Part shown: positions 29,491 to 38,942 of the stretch, in pieces
How the letters are laid out: every line of letters starts with the position of its first letter
Position numbering within the stretch: position 1 is the first letter of the stretch
NCBI RefSeq assembly: GCF_000172155.1
Contig: NZ_ABIZ01000001.1
Coordinates: forward strand, 4,621,105-4,685,104
DNA: 64,000 nucleotides
DNA from: Verrucomicrobium spinosum DSM 4136 = JCM 18804
Lineage (GTDB): Bacteria > Verrucomicrobiota > Verrucomicrobiia > Verrucomicrobiales > Verrucomicrobiaceae
Reading direction: 5' to 3'
The notes under the pieces: generated by a model
Told to the model about the DNA's origin: nothing
The model's input: only the letters and a program-made list of their open reading frames with translations
The model's database searches: none
Program-made: the position numbers and the translations under genes

Positions 29491-30162
29491 ATGCACTTCG
29501 TCACAAAATGGCTAAAAGCTCCAACGATTTCTGACGTTGCTCAGCACAGATCGTTCGAGGAGCAACGAAAGAGAGCTCGAATCCTTATCATTGACGATGA
29601 TCCTAACGCATTTCCTGTAGAACTACTTCAAAAGGAGGGCTACAACCTCACTCACTGGTTCAAGGTAGAGAACTACAAACCACTTGAGTCCGGAGAATAT
29701 GACATCGTCGTTCTTGATATCCAGGGGATACTTCCCGAAAACAAATCAAATGAAGATGGGATCGATCTCTTGCGACATATCAAAACCTACAATCCAGCTC
29801 AGATCGTGATTGCATACTCTGGCAAGAAACACGACCTAAACAAATCAGATTTCTGGAAACTTGCTGACGACTATCTCGGCAAGCCATCGTCAATAATGAT
29901 CTGCAAACAAAAGATCGACGAACTACTCACAAGCAGATTCTCTATAGACTATTACTGGTCCGTAATAAAAAACCTACTTCAATCACAGGAGGTTAGCGAG
30001 AAGGACATCAGCAAACTGGAGACAAGAATGGCCAAGAGTCTAAAGAAAAAGAAACCTTTAACGAAAGACGACATATCTGAGACTATCAAGCTCAGTCGAG
30101 AATCACTTGCAGCCGTCTCATTGGTCGTCGGTTTAATTACCCGTCTATACAGCACACCGTGA
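29491..30162 (+). CDS. receiver-domain protein (response-regulator-like)
   Basis: 223 residues. From about 27 to 145 it is a CheY-like receiver: RARILIIDDDPNAF (acidic pocket at 35-37), DIVVLDIQG (phospho-acceptor Asp76), the switch residue region IVIAYSGKK, and YLGKPSS with the conserved Lys. The C-terminal 75 residues are helical (ISKLETRMAKSLKKKKPLTK) with no DNA-binding domain, so output is by protein contact or the receiver is itself a partner. It is translationally coupled to a histidine kinase. Low GC and its place beside CBASS-like genes suggest a defence or signalling role of the island. Confidence 0.75.
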   Translation: MHFVTKWLKAPTISDVAQHRSFEEQRKRARILIIDDDPNAFPVELLQKEGYNLTHWFKVENYKPLESGEYDIVVLDIQGILPENKSNEDGIDLLRHIKTYNPAQIVIAYSGKKHDLNKSDFWKLADDYLGKPSSIMICKQKIDELLTSRFSIDYYWSVIKNLLQSQEVSEKDISKLETRMAKSLKKKKPLTKDDISETIKLSRESLAAVSLVVGLITRLYSTP

Positions 30163-31235
30163 ATAGAAGCATTGAGATTCTCCGGACTATATGCCCTCTG
30201 CCATTCATAGCAAGTGGACAGGAATACGATGGAAACACACAAAAACAGCCTTCTCGCTGTCTGAAATGTGTTCACAAGGCCTGCACTAGCGAGTCTGCAT
30301 CGCCCCTTGAACACAATGTCTGCCCTGAAACAATGTCGTACTACACTACATCATGGCTTGGGACACAGATCACATTCAACGGGTTAATCGTGGAGGATCG
30401 AAACAAAAAAGCGCCAACGCAGCTAAAAGTGGATCTCCGAAGGCTTTGCATAACGCATCACAACGCTCAGACTATCATCGGGAATATTCAACTTGTCGGC
30501 CATTTACTGAGTCGTGAATTGGACCTTGCAACCAAGGAAACGGTGAGCTTCCTCCACGACATTAGATCTTCTCTCTCACTCGTCATGTCAAACTGCGAGG
30601 CCCTGATATCGTCATCAAGTGGCAATGACTTCAGCTCAAAGCTGCATTCGTCGAGCCAACCTCTGAGGAACCTATATGGTTCAATCGGTTTACTTACCGA
30701 ACAATTGAACCTTGCAGATATTATCACGAACCCGCAGTCCATCACGTTTGGAAGGAGGTCCCAATGCTCCCTGCATGGATTTTTGTTCAGAATTGTAAAG
30801 TTGTTTGAATCCAGAGCAAGCGAGAAAAGGGTCTGGCTTCAACTCGGAGAACTCAAAGGAGAGATCTTCCTATCGCTCTATCAGTCATTCCAGTTTGTCC
30901 CCCTGATTCTCTTAGACAACGCATTGAAATACTGCAACCCTAAATCGAACGTCTATATTCAAATTTCGCATGCAGTTGGCGATCTTCGTATAACATTCAC
31001 GTCTTACGGAGAAATTGTTCCAGACGACTTTCATGAAAAAATATTTGAAAGACACGTCCGAGGACCTAACGCCCTGAGTAGCCAGATCCAAGGATCGGGA
31101 CTTGGTTTGTCCATTGCCAAAGCGGTAGTTGAGGCGCATGGCTATGCTATCTTCTACTCCTCAGCGCCGCAATCTCAGCAAAACTTTTTCACGATTGTCG
31201 TTCCGAAGGGTTCTTTTGTTAAGACAGGGCGTTGA
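30159..31235 (+). CDS. soluble histidine kinase with Cys-rich N-terminus
   Basis: 358 residues starting at a GTG that overlaps the receiver stop (GTGA). There is no transmembrane segment. The N-terminus has clustered cysteines (C12, C34, C37, C42, C55) that may bind metal. FLHDIRSSLSLV (H133) fits an H-box. The HATPase_c domain has LDNALKYC (N box), an F-box-like DFHEKIFERHVRG, and GSGLGLSIAKAVVEAHG. A cytosolic kinase with no recognisable sensor domain, encoded after its receiver, is unlike ordinary two-component pairs. It recalls defence kinases such as Detocs in principle, but lacks the TPR sensor and the known effector. Confidence 0.75.
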   Translation: MNRSIEILRTICPLPFIASGQEYDGNTQKQPSRCLKCVHKACTSESASPLEHNVCPETMSYYTTSWLGTQITFNGLIVEDRNKKAPTQLKVDLRRLCITHHNAQTIIGNIQLVGHLLSRELDLATKETVSFLHDIRSSLSLVMSNCEALISSSSGNDFSSKLHSSSQPLRNLYGSIGLLTEQLNLADIITNPQSITFGRRSQCSLHGFLFRIVKLFESRASEKRVWLQLGELKGEIFLSLYQSFQFVPLILLDNALKYCNPKSNVYIQISHAVGDLRITFTSYGEIVPDDFHEKIFERHVRGPNALSSQIQGSGLGLSIAKAVVEAHGYAIFYSSAPQSQQNFFTIVVPKGSFVKTGR

Positions 31236-31382: not shown

Positions 31383-32069
31383 TTACCGTAAAGTCGAATC
31401 AGGCGTTCCAGAAGGTTTCAGTCTTTGATCGCGATCACTTTTGAGAACCCCGGGAAGAAATGCATCAATCTCCTCATCAGCGAAGGTTAAGTCCTCCTTG
31501 GTCTTCAGAGCAGCCTGGGCCTTGGCGTATGCTTTGCTAGTGGTGGCTGGAGCACTTTCGTAGATTTTCCCCAGATCCGCAGTGATCGAGTCACGTTCCT
31601 TCTGGAGTGTTTCGATAGGCCGCTCCCCCATCACGATATCAACGAGCAAAGTCAAATACCGCTCCCGAATCATCCAAAGCGCAGCGCCTGTTTGCTTATG
31701 CTTCTGAGCAAGCTGCCCATGGTCGTAGCTCTTTGTGTATGTGTTTAGCCCGAGAAGAGCAGTGGAAACCAAACCACCCACGATGGATGACCATTTCCCA
31801 GCATCGAAGGCAGCAGCTATAAATCCCCCCGCAGCCACAGCTGAGCACACAATCTGGCAGAGTTTGATCTGCGCCCAGGCGTCAAGCAACAAGTCTGCGC
31901 ACTTCTCATGCGTCTTATGGCTGTAGACGACACGGCCATAACATTCCCGGATCTGCCCTTCAAAAACACGACGGGAGAAAGGGGTGTCGTCAGTTCGAGA
32001 ATGGAGAGCAGCAGATGCTGCACCTGTTTCGCCTGGGGTACCGCTTTCTTCGGGATGGGACGGATTCAT
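31383..32069 (-). CDS. SLATT-domain two-helix membrane protein (CBASS-like effector)
   Basis: 228 residues: a charged N-terminal helix region (FEGQIRECYGRVVYSHKTHEKCADL), two hydrophobic helices (IVCSAVAAGGFIAAAF and IVGGLVSTALLGLNTYTKS), then long charged helices ending in a basic tail. This is the SLATT layout (SMODS- and SLOG-associating 2TM effector). Such proteins are predicted to form membrane pores once a nucleotide signal is made. It lies 84 bases downstream of the SMODS synthase and is transcribed with it. Confidence 0.78.
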   Translation of the reverse strand: MNPSHPEESGTPGETGAASAALHSRTDDTPFSRRVFEGQIRECYGRVVYSHKTHEKCADLLLDAWAQIKLCQIVCSAVAAGGFIAAAFDAGKWSSIVGGLVSTALLGLNTYTKSYDHGQLAQKHKQTGAALWMIRERYLTLLVDIVMGERPIETLQKERDSITADLGKIYESAPATTSKAYAKAQAALKTKEDLTFADEEIDAFLPGVLKSDRDQRLKPSGTPDSTLR

Positions 32070-32153
32070 GAGATCTTGACGGTCTGCTGTATTGAATGTT
32101 TTCGAATCAACTTCACCTACTTCCGAGTAGCTGTTTTAGCAAGGATGCCCTGC

Positions 32154-33449
32154 CTATCGGTCTTCGATTGGAACGTGGATTCTATCCTTCGCTACTACTA
32201 CACCATCTTTGATGGCATAGCATTCGACAATGTGATCTCCCTTGAAGTTTGTTGTCTCTGTCTTTCGCATACGGCCTCCATCAGGCCAGATCTGCCCGCG
32301 CACACAGTCCCTACGCTTCGCGACTTCACCGCGATTTAGGACCTTCCATTTAATAGTGTATGGTTCAGAGACCGTGATCTTGTTCACCCAAAATTCCAGG
32401 CTTTTGCTCGCCAAGAGTGGAATTTTTTTAGCAAGCATGTCGCGAAGGAGATTTATCCTATAGCCGGACTGCTTCACTTCACAATCAAGCTTCAACGTAT
32501 ATCGAATGTCGACCGGATATTTATCCTCGATGAACTCCTCGGTATCCCGCCAAGTCGAAGCAGCTTTCGTGATGGACTCCTCCATAGCCTCTTTGGGGAG
32601 GGGGAAGGGCCGCCCATATACCTTGCGCCACTTCTCGTTCGCGTTCTTCTGCTTCTCAGCGTTTATGGCTTCAACAGACAGCGCATACGCTTTTCTAGCT
32701 TTACGCTGAAATTTTTTCTTAACCCTGACCCACTGACGACTGCCCGGAGCAGCGTAGCGGTCCTGCTCAGGAAGCTTCCAAAGATAGTGAAAAAAATCAC
32801 GACTGAGCCAGTCGTAGTAAAGAAAACTCCTGCTATCGTATTCGGTTGTTTGGCAAAGGAAATTGTAAGCCAAAGTGTCAACCAGAAGTCCACCCATCTC
32901 CAAGCCATGTTTATTACGCCATGCCCGCGCCATCTTGCAAAGACGCTTCAGATTGTTGTTTTTGTCAGTATCCTTGGCAGAAATCTCGGCCATCTCTTCA
33001 CGCGGCTTAGTGATCTTCCAACTGGACTCGCCTTTGGTGTCTGGATACTTAAAGCTACCATCGACCTGCTCAAAGACGGGTTGAACTTCTACATGGAAGT
33101 TGGTGTAGGTAACGGTAACGACGAGCCTATCCACTTTTACAACTGTTGAGGGATAGCGGGCCTTTATTGCGTCCTTGGTGTGCTGAAGCAATCTCAGCTG
33201 TCCGCCATCCTCATATGCCGCCCACTTCCCTTGGGGCATAATGTAAAGCATGTCGAGGTCTGACAATCCGTTGATGCCAGTTTTCCGACCAAATGAACCA
33301 ACCTGAAGGCTGTTGGCGGTTTTGGATTCGGTCTCACGAAATTTCTTGTTGAGCGCCGCAGTCAATTCACCGTAGCGCAGGCTGATAGTCTCTGCATTCT
33401 GGATGGTAAGATTATCTAGGAACTCGTTAAAGGTCTCCGCTACTTTCAT
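32154..33449 (-). CDS. SMODS (CD-NTase-type) nucleotidyltransferase with AGS-C sensor domain
   Basis: 431 residues. The polymerase-beta-like core has GSFGRKTGINGLSDLDMLYI (Gly-Ser at 51-52, Asp pair at 64 and 66) and a third acid in HVEVQPVFE, the signature of second-messenger oligonucleotide synthases. A helical middle follows. The last 90 residues (SLEFWVNKITVSEPYTIKWK, CVRGQIWPDGGRM, HIVECYAIKDGVVVAKDRIH) match the AGS-C sensor fused to some SMODS enzymes. With the SLATT gene it forms a two-gene CBASS-like system in which infection would trigger nucleotide synthesis and membrane permeabilisation. The ATG at 33449 begins at the domain edge; a longer in-frame start adds 35 unlikely residues. 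Confidence 0.85.
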   Translation of the reverse strand: MKVAETFNEFLDNLTIQNAETISLRYGELTAALNKKFRETESKTANSLQVGSFGRKTGINGLSDLDMLYIMPQGKWAAYEDGGQLRLLQHTKDAIKARYPSTVVKVDRLVVTVTYTNFHVEVQPVFEQVDGSFKYPDTKGESSWKITKPREEMAEISAKDTDKNNNLKRLCKMARAWRNKHGLEMGGLLVDTLAYNFLCQTTEYDSRSFLYYDWLSRDFFHYLWKLPEQDRYAAPGSRQWVRVKKKFQRKARKAYALSVEAINAEKQKNANEKWRKVYGRPFPLPKEAMEESITKAASTWRDTEEFIEDKYPVDIRYTLKLDCEVKQSGYRINLLRDMLAKKIPLLASKSLEFWVNKITVSEPYTIKWKVLNRGEVAKRRDCVRGQIWPDGGRMRKTETTNFKGDHIVECYAIKDGVVVAKDRIHVPIEDR

Positions 33450-33687
33450 TGTTAGGTGGCAGATGATGATGTTGTATCGCTTAAGACGAAAGGCGGCTGG
33501 GGAGGCTAATGATGCCAAAGGTCCTATTTGCGATATCGCAGGTGAGTCCACCACCAGCGAGTGCGAATATTTGAAACGAATGACAGTTTCTATCCATCAC
33601 TCGTGGCATGAACGCCCCCAACCAAGTTTGCCGTAGTAAATGACGAGGTCCCGGCACCACTTCTGTGGCGCCGGGTATAGTCTTTGG

Positions 33688-34737: not shown

Positions 34738-35445
34738 ATGTGTGGCCGCTTTCGCTTTCGGGGAGAACTGCGGGAAGACGAACTCAAGCATATCCCCGGG
34801 CTGGAGATCCGTAGCGCCTTTCCGCCTCGCTACAACATCGCTCCTACCCAGATGTCTCCTGTGATCCGGTCCACAGTAGGAGGAGGGCACGAGGTTGAAG
34901 CCCTGCGGTGGGGTTTGGTGCCTTTCTGGGCAAAGGATCAGTCTTTTGGCAGCAAGGCCATCAACGCCCGCTCCGAGACGGTAACGGAAAAGCCGGCGTT
35001 TCGTGCCGCATTCAAATCCCGGCGGTGCCTGGTGCTCAGTCACGGCTTTTTCGAATGGGAGAATCTTCCCGACAAGAAGAAGCAGCCATGGCTTTTTACC
35101 CTCCCCGGCCAGGGCCTCATGGTGTTCGCGGGTCTATGGGAGTCCTGGAAACCTAAAGATACTGCCCCAGACACTCCACGGACAGAGACCTTCACCATCC
35201 TCACCACCACGGCCACCACCAGGGGAGCGTGGATTCACGATCGATTTCCCGTGATCTTGGAACCCGAAGACTGGTTGCATTGGATGGATGATGCCATCAG
35301 TCCCCAGGAGCTTGCCCGACTAGTGGAAAAAGTGCAAACAGGCAGGGCAGCCACTGAAATGAACCAGTGGCCCGTGACACCGAAAATGAACACGGTGAAA
35401 TACGAAGCGCCTGATGCCGTGAAGCCCCTATCTCAGGATCAATGA
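34738..35445 (+). CDS. SOS-response-associated peptidase (SRAP/YedK/HMCES family)
   Basis: 235 residues starting MCGRFRF. The catalytic Cys2 becomes N-terminal after Met removal. Other family hallmarks are YNIAPTQ, LRWGLVPFWAKD, INARSETVTEKPAFR, CLVLSHGFFEWE and TTTATTRGAWIHDRFPVIL (with the active-site His). The family covalently binds abasic sites in single-stranded DNA and protects them. It is full length and intact, directly after the dead ligase tail. Confidence 0.93.
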   Translation: MCGRFRFRGELREDELKHIPGLEIRSAFPPRYNIAPTQMSPVIRSTVGGGHEVEALRWGLVPFWAKDQSFGSKAINARSETVTEKPAFRAAFKSRRCLVLSHGFFEWENLPDKKKQPWLFTLPGQGLMVFAGLWESWKPKDTAPDTPRTETFTILTTTATTRGAWIHDRFPVILEPEDWLHWMDDAISPQELARLVEKVQTGRAATEMNQWPVTPKMNTVKYEAPDAVKPLSQDQ

Positions 35446-35502
35446 ACGTTACCAGTGAAAATGATTAGAGCGAATCTGCTCAGAGTGGACTAGCGCTTTC
35501 GA

Positions 35503-36840
35503 TCACACTTCCACGTCATACGAGCATTCAGCTTCGCCGCGCTCTTGACGACGAATCTCTTCTTTTAGCCGACGCCAGTGCTCTTTCACCTGCTTCTTGA
35601 TTCCGCCGTCTCCCATGATGCGGGCGGCCTCAAAAGCGTAGCTAAGAAAGTTGTGACGGCCCAGGTATGAATAGCGGATGTATAGCTGCTTCACCCGTAA
35701 ACGAGGAAGATGAGGAAACTCAGGGACCTCGGCACATCTGCGCATGATCGCTTTGGCACGTCTCACTCCCCTTCTCATCTTGCGACAATACCGGGCAAGA
35801 GATCCAGGGCGTATCCGCTTGTGGCGACCGTCGAAGGTAAACCCCAGATATTGCAGAGGTTTGGGAGTCGTTAACAAGCTGTTAACCATCCTGAAGTCGA
35901 TGCGCTCAGTTTTCTTGTCGTTAACCTGTAGAAAGAGTCTCGTGCACCACTCCAGCACCAGTCGCTCAGCTTCGTCACGAGCCTCGGTATTGGGCAAGAC
36001 TAAAAGGAGATCATCACAGTACCGGCGATACAGCCCCCCATGGGAATCCGCAAACGACTTCATTGCCTCGTCGAACTCCAAAACGTAGATGTTCGCCAGA
36101 ACTGCGCTGATGGGCGATCCCTGAGGAATACCCATCCTCGATCGGTTCACCTCGACTAGCCCTCCACCTCTGACCTTGTCTCGGAACTCAGCCGGGGTGC
36201 AAATTCGCTGTCTTCTTGTGCTGTGGTTGTCGTGAGCGTCTAAACCCATGACCTCACGGAGCTGAACACGGTTCACGCTTGCGTGTTTCGTGATCGCCTT
36301 GAAGACGGCATAGTGATCCGCAGGTAGTGTTTCCACTCCCATGCACCGACACCATGCACGCTTCAGATGCCGATGGTCTAGTCTGTCAAAGAACTGAGAG
36401 AAGTCCATCGCGAGTACTGAGCACGGCCCTCTCCTGCGGATATCCTCGAACACATCATTCGCAAAGTGTATGTTTTTGAGCGCGACGTCTCTGCCTCCTT
36501 CCCGTCGTCGCAGACTCCTGAATGCAGTCACAACATCCTGAAGTCCCAGTTCACACAAGTGTAGCTCGTAGCACTCGCTTAGAATCTGTGAGTACCATCC
36601 GAAAATGTGGCTATCGGCGTGAGCCGCGTACGCGATCCTCCTTTGTTTTGGTGTTGATTTCTGGATTCCCCCGCCCTCTTTCTTCTGAACCTTCACGGTC
36701 TCCACAACGTGGTGGATTAAGGGGTAGAATGAGTGGCAGGATACTTCCGCGGCATCGGTAGCTAGAGCCCTCGCGGCGGCCTCGTTGATCGGATGGTCGA
36801 AGTGGAGGTAGGTTCGCGGATTGAATTTAAACTCTGGCAT
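35503..36840 (-). CDS. DRT2-like (unknown-group) antiviral reverse transcriptase
   Basis: 445 residues. It opens PEFKFNPRTYLHFDHPINEA. Reverse-transcriptase motifs: LAMDFSQFFD (146-152, first catalytic Asp), MGIPQGSPISAVLANIYV, YRRYCDDLLLVLP (YCDD at 274-277), VNDKKTERIDF and LQYLGFTFDG, with a basic thumb region after them. There is no maturase X or endonuclease domain, so it is not a group II intron protein. YCDD, the length, and the structured non-coding DNA just upstream favour the DRT2/UG2 class, in which the enzyme copies an upstream RNA into concatemeric cDNA. The class is inferred. The ATG at 36840 was taken over a TTG at 36858. Confidence 0.82.
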   Translation of the reverse strand: MPEFKFNPRTYLHFDHPINEAAARALATDAAEVSCHSFYPLIHHVVETVKVQKKEGGGIQKSTPKQRRIAYAAHADSHIFGWYSQILSECYELHLCELGLQDVVTAFRSLRRREGGRDVALKNIHFANDVFEDIRRRGPCSVLAMDFSQFFDRLDHRHLKRAWCRCMGVETLPADHYAVFKAITKHASVNRVQLREVMGLDAHDNHSTRRQRICTPAEFRDKVRGGGLVEVNRSRMGIPQGSPISAVLANIYVLEFDEAMKSFADSHGGLYRRYCDDLLLVLPNTEARDEAERLVLEWCTRLFLQVNDKKTERIDFRMVNSLLTTPKPLQYLGFTFDGRHKRIRPGSLARYCRKMRRGVRRAKAIMRRCAEVPEFPHLPRLRVKQLYIRYSYLGRHNFLSYAFEAARIMGDGGIKKQVKEHWRRLKEEIRRQERGEAECSYDVEV

Positions 36841-36858
36841 CTGGAAAAAATTTGCCAA

Positions 36859-37135
36859 CTGACGACGGAGGTGACGACCATGTCCCGGGAGTTGTCGTCG
36901 TCAGTTAGCGTTTAAATTTCGTCTGGCACAGTCGCTAGGTGCCCCAGCACGGGTCGTAAGCAATCTGAATCTCATCTGGGAGAGGCATAAAGCCCCCCGC
37001 AACCGATGCTGCGGGCGACCACATTGGAGCTCAGTGTATGCTGTTTTGCAATTGCAAAACTACACGCTCCAGTGCACCTAAATTTCGACACACATCTTTA
37101 AACATTGTTGAACGAGAATTATTTTTCTCGTGTGG
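36859..37135 (-). ncRNA. structured RNA upstream of the reverse transcriptase (candidate template RNA)
   Basis: 277 gene-free bases that fold strongly on the RT strand. In transcript order they hold: TAGGTGC pairing with GCACCTA over about 140 nt; inside it a long hairpin GGAGC/GCTCC with GTTTTGCAATTGCAAAAC, an 18-nt perfect palindrome, at its tip; a GCCCGCA/TGCGGGGGC hairpin; and, just before the RT, AACTGACGACG pairing with CGTCGTCAGTT. A 9-base direct repeat, CGAAATTTA, frames the inner part (37079-37087 and 36913-36921). ACGAGAA/TTCTCGT at about 37113-37133 may mark the promoter or 5' end. Exact ends are not determined. Confidence 0.6.
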
Positions 37136-37230
37136 GAGATGCTGCTACTGGAACCTATCCACCCTCCAACTAGGTTAAGGATTGGCCAAGTGTGGTCACC
37201 GAGGGCCCGCGATGGCTAGGCAGATCAAGC

Positions 37231-38487
37231 TCAAAGCCCGTCGAACCCAGGGACAAGGTCGACGGCGGCTCGCAGGGACTGAATCTCAGCATGGGAATAG
37301 CCATCATTCGATTCCGTATCGCTGTGTCCCACGATCTTCATTCGGATCTCTTGAGCCACCCCCTTGTTTAACATGGCAGAATTGAAGGTATGCCTTAGAG
37401 AATGGAACGATTTGGAGTGACTTGATCGCCCCGCCTCCCCCTCGATCCGCAACTTCACCTTGCCCCGGGACACCCCCGCCTTCTCCATGATCTTCACGAA
37501 CTTGGCAGACAGTCCGCGATTACCACTGACGCTGATTCGACACAGCGACGGAAAGCAGTAGTCATCAGAATCGGCATTGGGAGGCATCTTCGCGAAATGC
37601 TTCTGAAGTTCCCGATGCATGGGAAGCAAGACCTTGGCCTTTTTTCCTCGTCGGCTACTCTTCTCAGGAATGTACGAGATGCTTCCTTCAGCAATATTCA
37701 GATTCGACATCCGAAGTCTCGCAGCATCGCCCAGTCTGAGCCCTCCAAACGCCCCCAGAAGTATCACCCCCCTCCATTCGTTCGAATAAGCGGCCGTCAC
37801 CAGGGCCTGCACTTCCTTCGGAGTGAAAGTTTCCCGTTCCATTCCATCCTCCTCAGGAAGGTCTTGGAGAGTTCCTGCAGGCAGGCTTCGAAGCAATCCT
37901 TCTTTCACTGCAGCAGACAACGAAGCCCTGAGGTCTTTGATGTAACCGTTGCACGTCTTTGCGGTCCGACCTCCCTTGTGGAGCATCTCACGAAAGCTCC
38001 TGAGATTCTGTACTGACAGATGCTCCAAAGGAAGCTCTGCCTTTTCTCCGAGGAACTCAAGGAAGGAATCCACGCTATGCTGGTAGCGCGTCACCGTGGC
38101 CTTCTTGGTGGTTGGAGTCTTCAATGCAATCCATTCATTGAGCCACCCTTTGATCGTCCAGACCTTTAGCGACTCACCGGTCGCCTCCTTAACGATCTCC
38201 GCCAGAAGTGAACGCCCTTCGTCGATCGTCAGCCTTTTCTGCATTGCCAGTTCTGCAGCTCTCCTGAGAATTCCCAAGATTCGCTTGCTGCCATCCTCTC
38301 CTGCTCCGCTCTCCCTCAGGGCATCGTCCTCCAAAACATCAGCCGCCTTCTGCGCCTTTGAGCGGTCTGTGTGCTTGGTGACTTTCCTCTCGAGCTTCCA
38401 CTGCCGGTTGCCCGCACCGTCAACCAGCGGCGTCCGGTAAGCTGCATACCAAAAGCGAGAGCCTGGACGTTTGAACACAGAAGCCAT
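37231..38487 (-). CDS. tyrosine recombinase / phage-type integrase
   Basis: 418 residues: an N-terminal Arm-type start (FKRPGSRFWYAAYRTPLVDG), a SAM-like core-binding domain near 130-220, and a catalytic domain with LGAFGGLRLGDAARL (Arg I), SFHSLRHTFNSAM (His-x-x-Arg), KIVGHSDTESNDGYSHAE (second His, nucleophile Tyr). Full length and intact. It ends the island next to a tRNA 3' remnant 110 bases away, as expected for an enzyme that integrates at a tRNA gene. Confidence 0.92.
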   Translation of the reverse strand: MASVFKRPGSRFWYAAYRTPLVDGAGNRQWKLERKVTKHTDRSKAQKAADVLEDDALRESGAGEDGSKRILGILRRAAELAMQKRLTIDEGRSLLAEIVKEATGESLKVWTIKGWLNEWIALKTPTTKKATVTRYQHSVDSFLEFLGEKAELPLEHLSVQNLRSFREMLHKGGRTAKTCNGYIKDLRASLSAAVKEGLLRSLPAGTLQDLPEEDGMERETFTPKEVQALVTAAYSNEWRGVILLGAFGGLRLGDAARLRMSNLNIAEGSISYIPEKSSRRGKKAKVLLPMHRELQKHFAKMPPNADSDDYCFPSLCRISVSGNRGLSAKFVKIMEKAGVSRGKVKLRIEGEAGRSSHSKSFHSLRHTFNSAMLNKGVAQEIRMKIVGHSDTESNDGYSHAEIQSLRAAVDLVPGFDGL

Positions 38488-38594
38488 AGTGTGGGAACAT
38501 TATGGGAACAATCCATGATGTCCAGCAAAGTTTGAAGAGATCCCCTCCCCGGGAGTCGCGGCATAACCCACTCACTATCAACGCTGTATATCGA

Positions 38595-38622
38595 ATCCTG
38601 GGTTCGATCCCCAGCCCACGCA
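38595..38622 (+). tRNA. tRNA 3'-end remnant (attachment site half)
   Basis: A T-arm (stem CTGGG/CCCAG around TTCGATC at 38598-38614) is followed by the acceptor strand CCCACGC and a discriminator A. The matching 5' strand GCGTGGG and a D arm are missing upstream, so this is only the 3' piece that remains at one end of an element integrated into a tRNA gene. The isotype cannot be assigned. Confidence 0.7.
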
Positions 38623-38942
38623 CTTTTCCCGTCCAAACTGGATTGAGGAAATACTTTACGGGGCGCTTCCAAAGCTGGCAGTCCTGTTCGCTGAAACAAT
38701 TTGTTCGAGCGGCAACTCAACTCCGGTTCGCGCGGGTCAGATACTCTGCCCACACCAGTTCCTATCCAGAATCCACATGCCGGGTTCATTGAGACCGGGC
38801 GATCCGTGGCGGATTCCCGTTGATCATGTGGGAGTTGGGAGATCTTCCAGAAAGCCATGCAATCGTCACATGGCATCGGATTCGCAGTGTGCGGCACAAG
38901 CAGTGACTTGCGCGGCCGTGTGATTCCTGCTGGGATTCTGCC

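What the first reader, a model, noticed from the sequence alone, without database searches (positions are those of the whole stretch)
35503..37135. DRT2-like reverse transcriptase with a strongly structured upstream RNA
The RT has YCDD, no maturase or endonuclease domain, and 277 gene-free bases upstream. These fold into an outer 7-bp clamp, a long hairpin tipped by an 18-base perfect palindrome, a GC-rich hairpin, and an 11-bp stem next to the start codon. In DRT2 systems such an RNA is copied by rolling-circle reverse transcription into a concatemer that encodes a stop-free toxic protein. A Verrucomicrobiota version with this RNA shape would widen the known family.
Basis: partly seen in the sequence, partly recalled or inferred. 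Interest (0 to 1): 0.85.

Follow-up and report, generated by a model that had tools for sequence, protein, structure and literature searches.

The report
DRT2 reverse transcriptase, shrunken RNA template
A Verrucomicrobiota bacterium carries an anti-phage reverse transcriptase of the DRT2 family, but its partner RNA seems to have lost the long hidden toxin gene that other DRT2 RNAs carry and to keep only a 20-30 base template, so it probably makes short repeated DNA instead.

Summary
The reverse transcriptase (RT) is real, intact (YCDD) and belongs to DRT2: PADLOC Drt2 at 6e-153, and full-length alignment to solved Klebsiella DRT2 at 1e-106. It forms a fully supported clade with three other Verrucomicrobiota RTs (L013, L014, L015). 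The upstream DNA does fold strongly (z -4.6). Most other DRT2 loci I fetched, including a second Verrucomicrobiota clade, have a ~100-150 nt template with an endless frame, usually with a rebuilt promoter. The window clade scores at chance on that scan. In these four loci the handle hairpin lies only 33-35 nt from the scaffold pseudoknot, against 136-139 nt in Neo-type Verrucomicrobiota DRT2. The segment between holds a small hairpin (CUCC-N5-GAG in three of four), flanked by short direct repeats in L013 and L014. Between L013 and L014 it is the only hypervariable stretch, although the RT is under purifying selection. My best explanation is a DRT2 variant with a compact template that makes short tandem-repeat cDNA by template realignment, as telomerase and DRT10 do. 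Only four loci support this, the window's own repeat boundaries are weak, and nothing was tested experimentally. A long but unrecognised template remains possible.

The parts
35503..36858 (-). DRT2-family reverse transcriptase (likely start ATG at 36840), YCDD motif at residues 280-283
   Evidence: PADLOC Drt2 6.3e-153; PDB 9c0i/9lje (DRT2) 1e-106 over residues 12-437; RVT_1
   Evidence: local dG -21.2, 0/300 shuffles as stable at that place; same outer GGU/GCU pairs and CCC/GGG base as L013/L014; both-sided pair changes at 5 of 8 positions
36958..36990 (-). 33-nt presumed template segment UUAUGCCUCUCCCAGAUGAGAUUCAGAUUGCUU with hairpin UCUC-CCAGAU-GAGA; possible A...A' repeat UGC...UGC (25-nt period)
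   Evidence: same place and length as in L013/L014/L015 (35/35/33 nt); shared CUCC-N5-GAG with L013/L014, P 0.0008 in shuffles; UGC repeat not significant (P 0.88)
36952..36957 (-). pseudoknot 5' strand ACGACC
   Evidence: complementary to GGUCGU in the terminal-stem loop; position matches GCGGC/GCAGC/GCGAU of relatives; 5 of 5 positions with both-sided changes
36938..36951 (-). tower-like hairpin CGUGC-UGGG-GCACC
   Evidence: position after the pseudoknot as in canonical DRT2 RNA; inference from sequence (coordinates)
36896..36906 (-). terminal scaffold stem, 5' arm AACUGACGACG
   Evidence: 11-bp stem; relatives have AACCGGGA/UCCCGGUU etc.
36874..36879 (-). pseudoknot 3' strand GGUCGU
37026..37070 (-). 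long hairpin tipped by the 18-nt palindrome GTTTTGCAATTGCAAAAC, upstream of the handle; promoter/operator DNA or a 5' extension of the RNA, not assigned
   Evidence: present in the sequence and in the fold; no clear counterpart in L013-L015

Best explanation
This is a DRT2-clade anti-phage RT with a compact ncRNA. The RNA keeps the DRT2 plan (5' handle hairpin, template, pseudoknot, tower, terminal stem, then the RT gene), but the template between handle and pseudoknot has shrunk from about 100-150 nt to about 20-30 nt, with a small hairpin inside. The RT most likely copies this short template and realigns the cDNA 3' end on a short repeat next to the pseudoknot (A-B-A', as ACA-1/ACA-2 in DRT2 or A/A' in DRT10 and telomerase). 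The product would be short tandem-repeat, hairpin-forming cDNA (about 25-nt unit in the window, 23-nt units in L013 and L014) rather than a neo gene. Sequence-supported steps: family, clade, scaffold, short handle-pseudoknot spacing, absence of Neo signals. Inferred steps: repeat synthesis, the exact unit, phage triggering, and toxicity or signalling by the DNA itself.
For: RT family and clade 100/99 with L013, L014, L015. L013/L014 carry the handle loop CUGAAACAGGG found in canonical Verrucomicrobiota handles, but 193 nt instead of 320-323 nt upstream of RT codon 12. The handle-to-pseudoknot segment is 33, 35, 35 and 33 nt in the four members, against 136-139 nt in L034, L041, L062, L070 and L177. 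The handle-position hairpin beats shuffles (win 0/300, L013 and L014 0.7%, L015 4%). CUCC-N5-GAG is shared by win, L013 and L014 (P 0.0008). Helices show both-sided changes: handle 5/8, pseudoknot 5/5, terminal stem 5/8 positions. L013 vs L014: segment 18/32 identical against 431/469 in the flanks (P 3.5e-7), while RT dN/dS is 0.17 (dS 0.25). L014 has a 7-nt repeat CCAAACC at mirrored positions (P 0.006), and AAAC recurs at the same places in L013, both with spacing 23, not a multiple of 3. Junction promoter plus endless frame (hexamer matches of at least 11 of 12) in 64 of 92 loci (2% of shuffles), but at chance in the four clade members.
Against: Only four loci, two of them close relatives. 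The window's own A/A' repeat is not above chance (P 0.88) and neither is L015's. L015 has four tandem copies of handle-like hairpins, so its boundaries are ambiguous. The window handle hairpin forms in the 296-nt fold but not in the MFE of other lengths. Neo promoter loss alone is not specific: some relatives outside the clade (L062, L063, L177), two of them with canonical-length templates, also score at chance. Conservation between L013 and L014 extends about 190 nt upstream of the handle, so the RNA may be longer than assumed. A covariance model of canonical 3' domains does not find the window. The pseudoknot test taken alone is weak (P 0.05-0.31). The segment and motif comparisons were made after looking at the sequences.
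Confidence: 0.52

Rival explanations
1. [quoted passage not shown]
For: An 87-nt choice (ACA...CTT|ACG) is a multiple of 3 and open in the canonical phase (SNLNLIWERHKAPRNRCCGRPHWSSVYAV); L013 and L014 also have an open frame of about 96 nt in that phase. The reverse complement of the palindrome arm reads TTGCAAAAC, somewhat like TTGACAAAC of Neo-type loci. Canonical DRT2 also have a hairpin ending about 33 nt before the pseudoknot inside the template.
Against: No junction promoter above chance; no in-frame ATG in that frame; no similarity to Neo of the other Verrucomicrobiota clade; L013/L014 frame changes are not synonymous and a TGA closes the frame at the -35-like box; the 11-nt handle-loop match in L013 sits at the compact position.
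Confidence: 0.15
2. DRT2 RT whose RNA is copied in some other way: a single-pass short cDNA, or a template elsewhere in the conserved ~190-nt upstream block, without tandem repeats.
For: Weak A/A' repeats in the window and L015; conservation upstream of the handle in L013/L014; strong extra structure upstream of the handle in the window.
Against: DRT2, DRT9 and DRT10 RTs all make repetitive DNA (PMC12632851); handle and scaffold bracket a segment of near-constant length as in DRT2.
Confidence: 0.25
3. The upstream RNA has decayed or the RT has been repurposed; the locus no longer works as a defence system.
For: The canonical DRT2 covariance model does not detect it; Neo signals are gone.
Against: RT is intact with YCDD in all four members; dN/dS 0.17 between L013 and L014; scaffold pairs are kept by both-sided changes; the locus lies among other defence genes.
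Confidence: 0.08

Closest known systems
KpnDRT2 / DRT2 (UG2) systems with neo gene (PMC11100668, PMC12039810; PDB 9c0i)
   Same: RT family over its full length, YCDD, ncRNA directly upstream, handle - template - pseudoknot - tower - terminal stem order
   Different: template about 20-30 nt instead of 111-129 nt, no junction promoter, no conserved endless frame, repeat units not multiples of 3 (23, 23, about 25)
Verrucomicrobiota DRT2 clade L034/L041/L062/L070/L177 (this work)
   Same: phylum, RT about 41-45% identical, handle loop CUGAAAYAGG shared with L013/L014
   Different: they keep a 123-126-nt template with a conserved Neo frame (S-x-x-x-Y/F-S/T-A/V-S/N... G-L/F-D-L/F)
DRT10 (UG17) (PMC12632851)
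   Same: proposed A-B-A' template right after a stable stem-loop, poorly conserved template sequence, short tandem repeats
   Different: RT is not UG17 (RT_UG17 2e-20 against Drt2 6e-153), no dedicated SLATT partner, different RNA scaffold; protein priming not known here
Telomerase
   Same: conceptually, repeated copying of a short template with realignment next to a pseudoknot
   Different: not shown to be related in RT lineage or RNA; analogy only

Membership tests
DRT2 (UG2) | RT sequence belongs to the Drt2 family | tested here: met
   PADLOC Drt2 6.3e-153 / 3e-148; PDB DRT2 1e-106; next best family 2e-20
DRT2 (UG2) | YCDD active site, no extra domain | tested here: met
   YCDD at residues 280-283, only RVT_1 in Pfam
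DRT2 (UG2) | ncRNA directly upstream with 5' handle and 3' pseudoknotted scaffold | tested here: met
   handle, pseudoknot and terminal stem with both-sided changes; covariance model R1 alone did not detect it; expression of the RNA not tested
DRT2 (UG2) | template of about 100-150 nt, multiple of 3, stop-free frame across the repeat junction | tested here: not met
   handle-to-pseudoknot only 33 nt; longer alternatives not supported
DRT2 (UG2) | -35/-10 promoter rebuilt across the repeat junction | tested here: not met
   best score at the shuffle mean in win, L013, L014, L015; some canonical-length relatives fail too
DRT2 (UG2) | matching ACA-1/ACA-2 type motifs flanking the template | tested here: inconclusive
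   CCAAACC repeat in L014 (P 0.006), AAAC in L013, only UGC in the window (P 0.88)
DRT2 (UG2) | phage-triggered concatemeric cDNA and growth arrest | not testable with these tools
   needs experiment
DRT10 (UG17) | RT of the UG17 family | tested here: not met
   RT_UG17 1.9e-20 against Drt2 6e-153
DRT10 (UG17) | A-B-A' short template after a stable stem-loop | tested here: inconclusive
   clear in L014, plausible in L013, weak in the window
Retron / group II intron RT | RT groups with retron or group II intron RTs | tested here: not met
   best retron model 1e-11 and group II-type RTs of the PDB about 1e-6 or weaker, against Drt2 6e-153; by profile and sequence score, not by a tree with those families

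The most novel reading that the evidence does not exclude
A Verrucomicrobiota branch of DRT2 has abandoned the neo gene: its RNA carries a fast-evolving ~23-25-nt template, and the RT works as a short-repeat (telomerase/DRT10-like) DNA synthesiser whose DNA product, not an encoded protein, is the effector or signal.
Probability: 0.42. Interest if true: 0.75.

Novelty: new variant of a known kind. Interest (0 to 1): 0.55.

Why it matters
DRT2 is known for hiding a toxic gene in an RNA. A natural DRT2 with the same scaffold but almost no template would show that the same RT-RNA machine can change its output from a gene to short repeats. It would link DRT2 to DRT9, DRT10 and telomerase-like synthesis, and it gives two closely related RNAs (L013, L014) whose differing short templates make the template test direct. 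The Neo-type Verrucomicrobiota loci found alongside indicate that the gene-making version also occurs in this phylum.

Tried and rejected
(2) 87-nt template open in the canonical phase: kept as a rival; the opening alone is not unusual and no promoter accompanies it. (3) Hairpin ACGAGAA-AAAUAA-UUCUCGU (37112-37131) as handle with a ~150-nt template: no stop-free frame. (4) Variable L013/L014 stretch as the tower hairpin: the tower lies after the pseudoknot at the canonical distance, 47-51 nt to the terminal stem. (5) Covariance model R1 from 32 canonical 3' domains: RNAalifold kept only the 5-bp pseudoknot; no match in the window clade. (6) Further members of the clade: none found beyond L013-L015 in IMG/VR, plasmids, phages, the own family (68 genomes) or about 1,560 genomes of the phylum searched in all. 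(7) Rfam: no relevant match. (8) No sigma-70-like promoter or terminator in 36800-37300.

Full report
What is there. The ORF at 35503-36858 (-) encodes a 451-aa RT (445 aa from ATG 36840) with YCDD. It hits PADLOC Drt2 at 6e-153, with the next family (UG17) at 2e-20, and aligns over residues 12-437 with the solved DRT2 RTs at 1e-106. Pfam shows RVT_1 only. The genome is an 8.2-Mb single contig with one such RT; its relatives are Verrucomicrobiota. A tyrosine recombinase (37231-38487, -) lies upstream and an SRAP gene (34738-35445, +) downstream; a CBASS-like pair (SMODS cyclase and 2TM SLATT effector) and a PDC-M43-like response regulator/kinase pair lie nearby, so this looks like a defence island.

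Relatives. Two alignment-driven scans and several genome searches gave about 90 usable DRT2 loci. In a maximum-likelihood tree the window RT groups with L013, L014 (Verrucomicrobiaceae) and L015 with support 100/99. A second Verrucomicrobiota clade (L034, L041, L062, L063, L070, L089, L177) and L045 lie elsewhere.

Canonical anatomy as yardstick. Published DRT2 RNAs run handle, ACA-1, template (111-129 nt in close KpDRT2 relatives, always a multiple of 3), ACA-2, pseudoknot and scaffold. The repeat junction rebuilds TTGACA-17-TATAAT and an endless frame (PMC12039810, PMC11100668). I wrote a scan for junction promoter plus stop-free frame. At 11 or more of 12 hexamer matches it rings in 64 of 92 loci against 2% of shuffles. 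It recovers Neo frames in the Klebsiella-type loci. With boundaries set by hand, in-phase endless frames appear also in L034, L041, L062, L070 and L177, with protein-level similarity such as SALMYSASITM...GLDLV. So Verrucomicrobiota have DRT2 loci that fit the Neo model.

The window clade departs from this. Win, L013, L014 and L015 score at or below the shuffle mean. L013 and L014 carry the handle loop CUGAAACAGGG seen in canonical Verrucomicrobiota handles, but 193 nt rather than 320-323 nt before RT codon 12. The hairpin there ends 33-35 nt before the pseudoknot strand, with segment lengths 33, 35, 35 and 33 nt in the four loci; canonical Verrucomicrobiota handles end at 136-139 nt. It shares the outer GGU/GCU pairs and the CCC/GGG base with L013. 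Downstream, pseudoknot, tower-like hairpin and terminal stem follow at the canonical spacing (47-51 nt from pseudoknot to terminal stem), with both-sided changes at 5/5 pseudoknot and 5/8 terminal-stem positions across the comparison set.

The short segment. It contains CUCC-N5-GAG in win, L013 and L014 (P 0.0008 for the window segment) and another hairpin in L015. Between L013 and L014 it is the only hypervariable stretch: 18/32 identical against 431/469 in the flanks (P 3.5e-7), while the RT has dS 0.25 and dN/dS 0.17. In the control pairs compared, the strongest dip inside the RNA is usually at the tower, not in the template. In L014 the segment is bracketed by CCAAACC...CCAAACC, in L013 by AAAC...AAAC, both 23 nt apart, next to handle and pseudoknot as ACA-1 and ACA-2 are. 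In the window the matching candidates are UGC...UGC (25 nt apart) or GCUU...GCUU (32 nt apart), neither above chance (for the former).

Mechanism. The simplest reading is the DRT2 machine with B cut from about 110 to about 20 nt, hence A-B-A' repeat synthesis as described for DRT10 (PMC12632851). Units of 23, 23 and about 25 nt are not multiples of 3, and the window unit has a stop codon, so a Neo-like protein is unlikely. In DRT10 itself, repeat addition tolerated a 10-nt B and was undetectable with a 20-nt B, so the longer B here would need DRT2-like rather than DRT10-like handling. What the DNA does (toxicity, sequestration, signal) is unknown; by analogy with DRT9 and DRT10 the DNA itself would act. 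This last step is inference.

Limits. The argument rests on four loci, two of them close. Boundaries in the window and L015 are not proven. The palindrome hairpin (37026-37070) and the clamp are unexplained; L013/L014 conservation upstream of the handle suggests a longer RNA or a promoter region. My literature search covered open-access papers only; no paper in it holds both DRT2 and Verrucomicrobiota, and one preprint notes that Neo annotation was harder in divergent DRT2 clades, which may have other mechanisms (PMC11100668).

Noticed in passing
window 31383-33554 (-): CBASS-like pair: SMODS/AGS-C oligonucleotide cyclase (PADLOC Cyclase 3e-194) and 2TM SLATT_4 effector (1.6e-74).
   Followed up: partly
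window 29491-31235 (+): Response-regulator and HATPase_c pair with weak matches to PADLOC candidates PDC-M43A/B.
   Followed up: partly
window 37231-38487 (-): Tyrosine recombinase directly upstream of the RT RNA; no tRNA in the window and no att-like direct repeats of 14 nt or more in 35380-38700.
   Followed up: partly
L034, L041, L062, L070, L177: Second Verrucomicrobiota DRT2 clade with canonical 123-126-nt templates and a conserved Neo frame.
   Followed up: yes
L015, about 35-135 nt upstream of the pseudoknot (same genome as L175): Four tandem 23-24-nt copies of a handle-like hairpin (GCCUGUYU...GGAGGC) upstream of the RT.
   Followed up: no
L077 upstream of RT: Geomonas DRT2 seems to have an extended 7-nt repeat GUUAACA in place of ACA-1/ACA-2.
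   Followed up: no
window 37039-37056 (approx.): 18-nt perfect palindrome GTTTTGCAATTGCAAAAC just upstream of the presumed RNA start; could be an operator.
   Followed up: no
L013:4391-4828 and L014:4391-4828 (-): Downstream of the RT in both genomes lies a secreted-looking protein of imperfect FRDAQGRMTGT repeats.
   Followed up: no
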